A DNA stretch of 64,000 nucleotides, taken from positions 39,768,526 to 39,832,525 of the forward strand of contig NC_092637.1 of NCBI RefSeq assembly GCF_039555335.1, in the 5' to 3' direction. The DNA is from Amphiura filiformis (lineage: Eukaryota > Echinodermata > Ophiuroidea > Amphilepidida > Amphiuridae). The position numbers were made by a program, and so were the translations under genes. Below are positions 21,001 to 24,000 of the stretch, in pieces (positions within the stretch are counted from its first letter, which is position 1; the number at the start of each line of letters is the position of its first letter). The notes under the pieces are model-generated. The model saw nothing but the letters and a program-made list of their open reading frames with translations, had not been told where the DNA came from and did not search any database.

Positions 21001-24000
21001 TTAACCATAGTACCAATATCCCATTTCCGCCGGCTGGCCTGTCATGCACATTATAGAAGCATATGAAATTGAAAATAGAAAACACAGAAATATCCATCAT
21101 TTACAAATTTGTTTTTTCAGACAACTTGGGTTTACAGGCCCAAGCACCTCTAGGTGCTGTGCTGCATACGGGCGCGTCACTACCACTACGCCAATATGGC
21201 TGATGCATTTGAGTTGTGATAGGACTGAAGAGAGGATAAGCGACTGCCGCAACATCTATGGATGGGGTTCAACCCATTGTGATCATTACGAGGATGCCGG
21301 GTTGATATGCTCAGGAGGTAAATTTCACTTTGAGCCAAAGTATCATTTTTAAATTTCCATTTGTTTCAGACAACTTGGATTTACAGGCACAAGCACCGCC
21401 AGGTGCTGTGCTGCATACGGACAGGGCACTACGCCAATATTGCTGATGCATTTGTATTGTGATAGAACTGAAGAGAGGCTAAGTGACTGCCGCAGCTCAG
21501 ATGGATGGGGTCCTCATTTATACCATTGTGATCATTACGAGGATGCCGGGATGATATGCTCAGGAGGTATATTTCACTTTGAGCCACCATTCCCAATAGC
21601 TTAGTTTACATCAATAGCTGCCAATCCAGCGAACACAGCACATTTTCAAAACGTGTCAAAAAGGATATATTTTTGATTTTGTGTCAAAACGTTTTAATAA
21701 CATTAAAGCCATATTATAACATTTTCATACAAAATAAATTAGCATTTCTTTGTCATAAAATTTTAGGTTTTATTGTCAGATATATGCCCTTTTAGTTTTG
21801 AGCCGAACAACCACGGCAAAGCAAAGAAAATTGGAATTTACTACCAGCGCATATGTCGCCAATACGTACCACTCTTTCGGTCATGTTATGGTACGACCCT
21901 TTGTTGTGTAGATCACCGTCCCGCACGCCGTGTGCGTACTGTGTGTTATGAACATCGTGTATGCGTTCGACTAATAATTCCATCGTAATAATAAAACGCC
22001 GGTTCCGGCTGTTTTATTCAATATCTCGGATTTTGACAAAACTACACCACCTAGAGTGTTGATTTTTGCAGGGTATATTGGTTTAATAAAGTACAATATA
22101 ATCGTGTAAAAAATGCATTTTAAAAAATCAGTAAATCAGCAAATGTTATAATAGGGCTTTAATTGGCGGGTTTGGTAAATGTTACGAAAACACACAGCAA
22201 AAACATTTTTAAATGTCAAAATGTTCATCATGTCAAGGAAAACCCATCTTTACCAGGTTTACCTTAAGGGAATGAGTATGAACGTTTGGACAGTATTTTT
22301 TGTGAGACATTAGAGCACATCAGACATATCGAATTGCATTCTGAATACGAAGAATGTCATTCTGATATCAAATAATTTTGATTTTTTGAAATTCGCCATG
22401 TAATACGCATTTTATGGCAAATCATTAAAAATCGATATTTTTGATATTTAACAGTACTGGAAGTAAACTTTATAAATCTGATGATTTATACTTAACGTGT
22501 ATGTAGGTGGGATGAAAAGCCGACGATCAATTGAAAATTTTGACCTTTCGTATTGAAGATACGGATTTTTATCCCCAAAACACACAAAAAAATTAGGTCT
22601 TTTGGGGAAAATATGAAAGGTCGAAATTTTCAATTGATCGTTGGCTTTTCCTCCCAGCTACATGCACTTTAAGAATATATTATTAGATTTATAAAATTTA
22701 CTTCGAGGACTGTTATATATCAAAAATATCAAATTTTTCCAATTTGTCATAAAATTTGTATTATATCGTGATTTTCAAAATTACAATTATTTGATATCAG
22801 AAAGACATGCTTCGTATTCAAAATGCAATTCGATACGTCTGAGGTGCTCTCATGTTCCATAAAAATACTGTCGAAACGCTCAGCTCATTCCAGATCCCTT
22901 AAATGTGCACTTGTTTTGCAACCTACATATCCTTGTCTCAGCGACTAAATTGGTAGCGCTTAAATACATCTTGTTCCATATTCTCCACTTTGAAAATACT
23001 TTCGGAGCATAAACCATTTTTAACTTTTTCGTAAAACAAAATCACTAAATTGCCACAATTCCATGAAAGGGAAGATTTACACTTGGCCAGTGCCCGAAGA
23101 GCCACAGATACGTACATACGAAACAATTTAAATCATGGATTGATAAATAAACGAAATTCCTTTCTTCCCTTATCAAAATTATTTTTTACTTTCTCCAAAA
23201 ATCTTAATCAATGTATCTTATACTTAATACGAATTCAAAATTACACGTTGCTGATTTTACTACTAAAATATGCTTTATTTTGCAGCTACAAATAATGTCA
23301 GATTGGTGGCAAACGGCACACAAGAAGGAGTGGTTGAAATCTTCGTCAATAGTCGATGGGGCTCCATCTGTTTCGATAACTGGGACATGCTTGATGCTGA
23401 TGTTCTCTGTCGTCAAATGAGATATACCGGTCAGTAAATTATCAAACTGAATTATCATCCTCTTTCATAACATTTAACCATATCACATACCCAGGTCCAG
23501 GGCCGTAGCAAGCAGGGCGGCCGGGGATGCCATAGCCGCCCCACTTTTTGAGAAATTTATTATGTTTTTCTTTATATCTTTATTTCAATTTGGGCATATA
23601 TTTGTATTTTGGCCGCCCCACTTGCTACGGCCCTGCCCAGGTCACATACCCAGGTGCGTACCCATGGGGCTGCTTTGGGGGCTGGTGCTCCCCAAGTTTA
23701 CGCCAAATAGTGGCAAATCAGCCTATATATTCGGGTACCTCAGCAGTTCTAAAACTATGAATAGATATTTGTACACAAATTGCGAAAGGGCTTATCGGCA
23801 GTCATCATTGTATAAAAATAAGAAAATAATAGTGGACAAGTCGAAGACACCTGTACCTGCAACCTCATATTTGACTACATGTCTGGCAGTGACAGGTCCT
23901 AGGTTCAACCATCTCAAAATTGTACTCACTGATTGCTCTTTGAAAATTTCACTTCCTTCCATTCTTTACTATTAACCCAAGAAGACAAATCGGTCAATAG

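What the first reader, a model, noticed from the sequence alone, without database searches (positions are those of the whole stretch)
21121..21566. Predicted mutually exclusive SRCR half-exons
Two 197-nt exons, 21121-21317 and 21370-21566, encode alternative C-terminal halves of SRCR1. Each enters in phase 2 and leaves in phase 1, so splicing both together would shift the frame. The intron between them is only 52 nt, short enough that steric blocking could enforce a choice. Length is conserved because a two-residue loss in one loop is balanced by a two-residue gain in another. The changes fall in loops while the cysteines are kept. That is the pattern expected of switchable ligand specificity in a recognition receptor.
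Basis: partly seen in the sequence, partly recalled or inferred. Interest (0 to 1): 0.78.

Follow-up and report, generated by a model that had tools for sequence, protein, structure and literature searches.

The report
Duplicated half-exon in a scavenger receptor
An animal receptor gene carries two slightly different side-by-side copies of one exon, arranged so that a working message can use only one of them, which would let one gene make two versions of a recognition domain; no transcript has yet been checked.

Summary
The exon pair is real. A (21121-21317) and B (21370-21566) are both 197 nt, open, AG/GT-flanked, phase 2 in and phase 1 out, 52 nt apart, and arose by a 249-nt tandem duplication. 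Joined to 13504-13636, each completes an SRCR domain equally well (100.9 v 101.2 bits). Using both, neither, or retaining the intron gives a stop. Branch-point candidates lie 10-42 nt from A's donor. All sequence criteria for mutually exclusive exons are met, and I think exclusive splicing most likely (0.6). No RNA or related genome could be examined.

Corrections: against other SRCRs each copy seems to have gained residues in a different loop, rather than a loss balanced by a gain. Frame incompatibility and the short intron are by-products of the duplication. Ka/Ks is 0.63 (0.26-1.69), so selection is not shown. Substitutions do not prefer family-variable columns (P 0.42). Known SRCR cation sites are mostly lost in both forms, so ligand switching is speculation. 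B's donor scores lowest of 14. Six of 15 downstream HYR stretches are broken, so gene decay or assembly error must be considered. A new candidate member of a known kind.

The parts
13504..13636 (+). Shared upstream exon: first half of SRCR1, phase 1 in, phase 2 out
   Evidence: Pfam SRCR when joined to A or B
21096..21586 (+). Tandem duplication, period 249: two copies of upstream intron end + exon + 20 nt of downstream intron
21121..21317 (+). Exon A: alternative second half of SRCR1; donor GAG|GTAAAT, acceptor GTTTTTTCAG
   Evidence: SRCR alone 37.7 bits v cut-off 26.1
21318..21369 (+). 52-nt intron between A and B; in-frame TAA at 21350-21352; branch-point candidates 10-42 nt from the donor
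21370..21566 (+). Exon B: alternative second half of SRCR1; donor GAG|GTATAT (lowest score of 14 donors), acceptor TTTGTTTCAG
   Evidence: SRCR alone 35.2 bits
21444..21446 (+). Premature TGA met if A and B are joined
23286..23429 (+). Shared downstream exon: first half of SRCR2, phase 1 in; TAA at 23293-23295 met if A and B are both skipped
24678..35300 (+). Rest of the SRCR region (predicted): second half of SRCR2, SRCR3-5 (split), SRCR6 first half, SRCR7 (single exon), SRCR8 second half; ten exons, none with a tandem copy at blastn E 1e-6

Best explanation
A and B are a tandem-duplicated pair of mutually exclusive exons encoding two versions of the C-terminal 65 residues of the first SRCR domain of a multi-domain SRCR protein. 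Shown: duplication, intact reading frames, intact splice borders, equal fit to the SRCR family, and that of the four combinations of A and B only one-of-two keeps the frame. Inferred: the spliceosome cannot use A's donor and B's branch point together because they are too close, so 13636 is joined either to 21121 or to 21370; any double inclusion or double skip meets an early stop and is probably removed by nonsense-mediated decay. A, with the stronger donor, is probably the default, and B probably needs an enhancer or a particular cell type. The product is the same receptor with a modestly altered SRCR1 surface.
For: Equal length, phase, splice borders and homology with no stop: the criteria of the published predictor in PMC3228551. 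In that paper (passages) only 90 of 16180 non-exclusive Drosophila X exons had these features. All four combinations were translated. The intron is 52 nt against 168-7484 nt for the other 12 predicted introns of the SRCR part. Both copies fit an outgroup SRCR profile equally, 100.9 and 101.2 bits; in 2000 simulations for each of four settings, unconstrained change of one copy reached the other's score in 2.2-3.2% of runs with 12 substitutions and 0.1-0.3% with 25 (no indels simulated, modern copies as start). Both indels are 6 nt and in frame in the codon alignment.
Against: There is no transcript, no junction read and no relative. Ka/Ks is 0.63 with bootstrap 0.26-1.69, so neutral drift of one copy is not excluded. 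Substitutions do not prefer family-variable columns (P 0.42). B's donor scores lowest of 14. No competing RNA structure was found (21 region pairs, lowest P 0.09). PMC5740500 says many neighbouring similar exons are not mutually exclusive (passage). Broken HYR stretches downstream raise the possibility that the gene is partly decayed.
Confidence: 0.6

Rival explanations
1. A recent exon duplication of which only one copy (probably A) is spliced in, the other being an unused or rare by-product not yet decayed.
For: Ka/Ks not distinguishable from 1; weak donor of B; B lost a tryptophan kept in 10 of 11 outgroup SRCRs; exclusivity features are automatic by-products of the duplication.
Against: Both copies score alike against the family and neither has a stop, a lost cysteine or an out-of-frame indel; neutral simulations rarely do as well. 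A has also departed at a glycine kept in 8 of 11, so divergence is not confined to one copy.
Confidence: 0.2
2. The pair lies in a gene that is decaying or is a pseudogene, so the choice has no function now.
For: Six of 15 HYR-like stretches downstream (near 36.1, 44.7, 45.3, 48.2, 50.0 and 50.6 kb) change frame or meet a stop inside what looks like one exon. The unpaired SRCR6 and SRCR8 halves could also be signs of decay.
Against: The 14 SRCR exons modelled are open with AG/GT borders, though they were found through open frames, so broken ones could be missed. The frame breaks may be assembly errors, or the SRCR gene may end before the HYR part.
Confidence: 0.1
3. Both exons are used as a quantity switch: joint inclusion or joint skipping makes a decayed message that turns the gene down, rather than a protein choice.
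For: Both outcomes give early stops followed by further predicted junctions.
Against: Joint inclusion needs efficient removal of a 52-nt intron, shorter than the other 12 predicted in this part of the gene, and the idea does not explain why both copies remain good SRCR halves.
Confidence: 0.06
4. Assembly artefact: two alleles or paralogous reads placed in tandem.
For: The assembly has a 200-N gap with partly similar flanks at 51416-51777, so local errors exist.
Against: Silent divergence Ks 0.21 is high for alleles (general knowledge, no call); the repeat is a clean 249-nt unit with unique flanks, and the only N run of the window is 30 kb away.
Confidence: 0.04

Closest known systems
Homologous mutually exclusive exon pairs from tandem exon duplication with a short intervening intron (for example OGDH exons 4a/4b, PMC7969005, passages)
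   Same: Two alternative exons around an intron whose branch points are too close to the first donor (25-41 nt in human OGDH; 10-42 nt candidates here).
   Different: OGDH exclusivity is shown by experiment; here there is no RNA. Here joint inclusion also shifts the frame; I did not check that for OGDH.
Exclusive exon arrays in invertebrate thioester proteins (BgTEP2 with 12 exons, CfTEP with six; PMC7016707, passages)
   Same: Tandem alternative exons in invertebrate immune proteins; CfTEP isoforms are said there to be induced in a pathogen-dependent pattern.
   Different: Different protein family; arrays of 6-12 exons rather than two; expression known there, unknown here.
Dscam1 exclusive exon clusters (arthropods; PMC6071210, passages)
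   Same: A segment of a surface protein exchanged by exclusive splicing.
   Different: Large clusters (48, 33 and 12 exons in Drosophila) linked to docking and selector RNA structures; no such pairing was detected here.
SRCR domains of DMBT1/SALSA, CD163 and MARCO
   Same: Same family by sequence: Pfam PF00530 and 26 distinct PDB sequences at E 0.001 or better for each form.
   Different: Site 3 cation ligands and one of three site 2 ligands (numbering of PMC7043408, passages) are replaced in this SRCR1, in both forms.

Membership tests
Mutually exclusive exons (criteria in PMC3228551 and PMC5740500) | Neighbouring internal exons of about the same length | tested here: met
   197 and 197 nt, adjacent
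Mutually exclusive exons (criteria in PMC3228551 and PMC5740500) | Compatible splice sites and conserved reading frame, no in-frame stop | tested here: met
   AG/GT borders, phase 2 to 1, both open
Mutually exclusive exons (criteria in PMC3228551 and PMC5740500) | Sequence homology | tested here: met
   blastn E 5e-57, 82.8% over 203 columns, exon to exon
Mutually exclusive exons (criteria in PMC3228551 and PMC5740500) | A possible enforcement (not required of every cluster): donor to branch point under 50 nt and/or frame incompatibility | tested here: met
   Candidates 10-42 nt (nearly automatic in a 52-nt intron; the branch point is only predicted); joint inclusion gives a stop at 21444
Mutually exclusive exons (criteria in PMC3228551 and PMC5740500) | Each transcript has exactly one of the exons; bridging junction reads for both | not testable with these tools
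   No RNA data, and no host genome held
Mutually exclusive exons controlled by competing RNA structures | Docking and selector complementarity | tested here: not met
   21 region pairs near the exons, none below P 0.09 against 100 shuffles each; single sequence, only parts of the long introns
SRCR domain (PF00530) | Full-length match above the curated cut-off | tested here: met
   127.1 and 126.0 bits v 26.1, profile 2-100 of 100; the query includes the first half of SRCR2
SRCR with the SALSA/MARCO cation-dependent ligand site | D1019, D1020, E1086 (site 2) and D1020, D1058, D1059, N1081 (site 3) kept | tested here: not met
   Both forms read D, H, E for site 2 and H, M, H, H for site 3, mapped by alignment through SRCR7

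The most novel reading that the evidence does not exclude
An invertebrate scavenger-receptor gene that swaps half of an SRCR domain by exclusive splicing, choosing A or B by tissue or infection, so that SRCR receptors use not only gene multiplication but also Dscam- or TEP-like exon choice to diversify recognition; a second choice may exist in the same gene, where the single-exon SRCR7 sits inside a split SRCR domain.
Probability: 0.12. Interest if true: 0.65.

Novelty: new member of a known kind. Interest (0 to 1): 0.36.

Why it matters
If transcripts confirm it, this would be an example of exclusive splicing within one SRCR domain. I saw no report of that in the searches that bear on it: 9 of 9 papers listed; 17 of 17; 7 of 7; 6 of 6; 15 of 55; 20 of 175, none of the 20 mentioning SRCR; listings and abstract starts, with passages of PMC1988830 only, in an open-access library, so this is weak evidence of absence. 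SRCR genes in sponge and sea urchin are described as expanding by gene duplication (PMC10855680, passages). Exon choice would be a second route, and the pair gives a simple two-isoform test of whether SRCR loop changes alter what is bound. If it is only a young duplication, it is a good snapshot of how exclusive exons arise with their exclusivity built in.

Tried and rejected
Allele or assembly duplication: judged unlikely because of Ks 0.21, a clean 249-nt period and unique flanks. Retained-intron reading: 249 is a multiple of three, so A + intron + B keeps the phase, but a TAA at 21350-21352 stops it. RNA docking and selector structures: none found; the region 21060-21600 folds 1.3 SD below the mean of 50 shuffles, not notable. 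Selection on the exon pair: Ka/Ks not significant, no unusual clustering of differences (longest identical run P 0.45), no preference for family-variable columns (P 0.42). The loop clustering P of 0.0015 used loops picked after seeing the indels and is not counted as support. Further copies of A or B elsewhere in the window: none (blastn E up to 1; phmmer on open frames of 20 aa or more found other SRCR halves only). Rfam (gathering threshold) and tRNA scans: nothing. NCBIfam with form A: nothing. Splice-site and branch-point weights are human-like frequencies typed from recall, so ranks are rough. The species' smallest introns were looked for in print without a figure found. Species not identified; an invertebrate deuterostome is my guess from the SRCR and HYR content and rests on no call.

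Full report
The observation. Exons A (21121-21317) and B (21370-21566) exist as described. Both are 197 nt, begin after a pyrimidine-rich AG, end at GAG|GT, and continue the frame left by 13504-13636 (phase 2) into 23286-23429 (phase 1). I translated all four combinations: E1-A-E3 and E1-B-E3 are open through the joined stretch; E1-A-B-E3 stops at 21444-21446; E1-E3 stops at 23293-23295. Retaining the intron stops at 21350-21352. The pair is a tandem duplication with a 249-nt period covering 21096-21337 and 21342-21586. The 52-nt intron is about 20 nt of duplicated downstream intron (19 of 20 identical) plus about 30 nt resembling, with gaps, the intron end upstream of A (40-nt alignment: 29 matches, 5 mismatches, 12 gap columns).

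The gene. No host genome is held and the window is eukaryotic in structure, so all genomic context comes from the window. On the + strand there are SRCR pieces from 13504 to 35300: 14 exons modelled by domain and splice borders, namely five domains with both halves in order (SRCR1-5, SRCR1 with two second halves), an unpaired first half (SRCR6), a single-exon SRCR7 and an unpaired second half (SRCR8). Fifteen HYR-like stretches follow from 36 to 52 kb; the search profile was built from seven of them, and the four sent to Pfam all matched HYR. Threonine-rich stretches lie upstream and at 62.5-63.9 kb. In the self-comparison of the window (blastn, E 1e-6), A/B is the only tandem copy of an SRCR or HYR exon, apart from partly similar sequence on the two sides of the N gap at 51.4-51.8 kb; older copies would be missed.

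Are both copies good? Joined to the first half, A and B score 127.1 and 126.0 bits against Pfam SRCR (the query also held half of SRCR2), and 100.9 and 101.2 against a profile of five other window SRCRs and six CD163 domains. Each has 26 distinct PDB sequences at E 0.001 or better. All six cysteines of the half are kept, including a vicinal CC pair that none of the 11 outgroups has. In simulations (2000 for each of four settings, substitutions only), unconstrained change of one copy lost a cysteine or gained a stop in 74-76% of runs with 12 substitutions and 93-94% with 25, and reached the other copy's profile score in 2.2-3.2% and 0.1-0.3%. That argues, modestly, for coding constraint on both copies. 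Against it, Ka/Ks is 0.63 with a 95% bootstrap interval of 0.26 to 1.69 (7.3 synonymous and 17.7 non-synonymous changes in 63 codons; 15.8% of bootstraps at 1 or more).

Where they differ. There are 13 aligned substitutions and two 6-nt indels. Before the PIWL strand, A has two residues more than B and than 10 of 11 outgroups (SRCR5 has one extra in the alignment). Before the seventh cysteine, B has two more than A and is longer than 10 of 11 outgroups (SRCR2 is much longer). So each copy seems to have gained residues in one loop, and equal length is a coincidence of two gains. Polarity by mean BLOSUM to outgroups is mixed: A departs at a glycine kept in 8 of 11, B at a tryptophan kept in 10 of 11. 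Changes are denser in the two indel loops (7 of 12 residues v 6 of 51), but I chose those loops after seeing the indels; the unbiased comparison with family variability gives P 0.42 (12 v 50 columns, one changed column without outgroup residues dropped).

Could this alter ligand binding? In SALSA SRCR8 the exposed cation sites use D1019, D1020 and E1086 (site 2) and D1020, D1058, D1059 and N1081 (site 3) (PMC7043408, passages). By alignment through SRCR7, whose spacing agrees with one extra residue, SRCR1 here has D, H, E and H, M, H, H, the same in A and B; of the SRCRs aligned only SRCR7 keeps the full site 2. So the known cation-dependent mechanism is probably weakened in this domain whichever exon is used. 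B's insertion lies just before the N1081 position, so an effect on a neighbouring surface is possible, but nothing shows it.

How exclusivity would work. The six best branch-point candidates in the 52-nt intron lie 10-42 nt from A's donor. PMC7969005 and PMC5740500 (passages) use about 50 nt as the limit below which donor and branch point cannot both be used; the first reports OGDH 4a/4b enforced by branch points at 25-41 nt, the second finds possible steric interference in 57 of 629 human clusters (9%) and lengths not divisible by three in 377 (60%). This pair has both. The other 12 predicted introns of the SRCR part are 168-7484 nt, so 52 nt is extreme for this gene, though the species' minimum is unknown (searches gave no figure). 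B's donor scores lowest of 14 and A's is seventh, with nearly equal acceptors (weights from recall): A is the likely default. No docking or selector pairing was found (21 region pairs).

What the anatomy does not prove. The frame incompatibility comes from the phases of the parent exon, and 7 of 14 SRCR exons in this gene have lengths not divisible by three. The short intron comes from the duplication breakpoints. Neither is evidence that exclusivity was selected. PMC5740500 also says that many similar neighbouring exons are not exclusive (passage). On the other side, PMC3228551 found these features in only 90 of 16180 non-exclusive exons of the Drosophila X (passage).

A result against. Six of 15 HYR-like stretches (near 36.1, 44.7, 45.3, 48.2, 50.0 and 50.6 kb) change frame or meet a stop inside what looks like one exon. 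These could be assembly indels, decay of the HYR part, or exons outside this gene. The 14 SRCR exons show none, but they were found through open frames, and the unpaired SRCR6 and SRCR8 halves might be decay too. The chance that the gene is partly or wholly dead is a named rival.

Verdict. The pair is a well-formed candidate for exclusive splicing in an SRCR gene, of a well-known evolutionary kind, with ordinary mechanisms sufficient to explain it. I put exclusive splicing at 0.6 and choice by tissue or challenge at about 0.12. In the paper searches that bear on it I saw no report of exclusive exons within an SRCR domain; the library is open-access, the lists were cut (15 of 55 and 20 of 175), and I saw listings and abstract starts, plus passages of PMC1988830.

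Noticed in passing
31759-31971, 32289-32618, 35130-35300: SRCR7 is a single phase 1-1 exon sitting between an unpaired SRCR first half and an unpaired second half which, joined, make one SRCR (Pfam 77.5 bits, profile 7-100). SRCR7 may be a cassette inside a split domain, so its inclusion would interrupt that domain.
   Followed up: partly
35953-36259, 44645-44960, 45099-45421, 48058-48371, 49936-50242, 50521-50793: HYR-like stretches that change reading frame or meet a stop inside what looks like one exon: assembly indels or decay.
   Followed up: partly
51416-51777: 200-N gap at 51501-51700 with partly similar flanks (83.5%) across an HYR-like stretch; possible misassembly.
   Followed up: no
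62597-63295: Thr/Ser-rich coding tandem repeat; Thr-rich stretches at 7211-7277, 11810-11943 and 63746-63864 match sequence at its end or beside it: repeated mucin-like exons along the locus.
   Followed up: no
21702-21724 and 22141-22163: Inverted repeat arms, 96% complementary, in the intron after exon B; adjoining sequence matches repeats around 62.0-62.5 kb, so perhaps a mobile-element remnant.
   Followed up: no
21121-21566: Both A and B encode a vicinal CC pair that none of the 11 outgroup SRCRs has.
   Followed up: no
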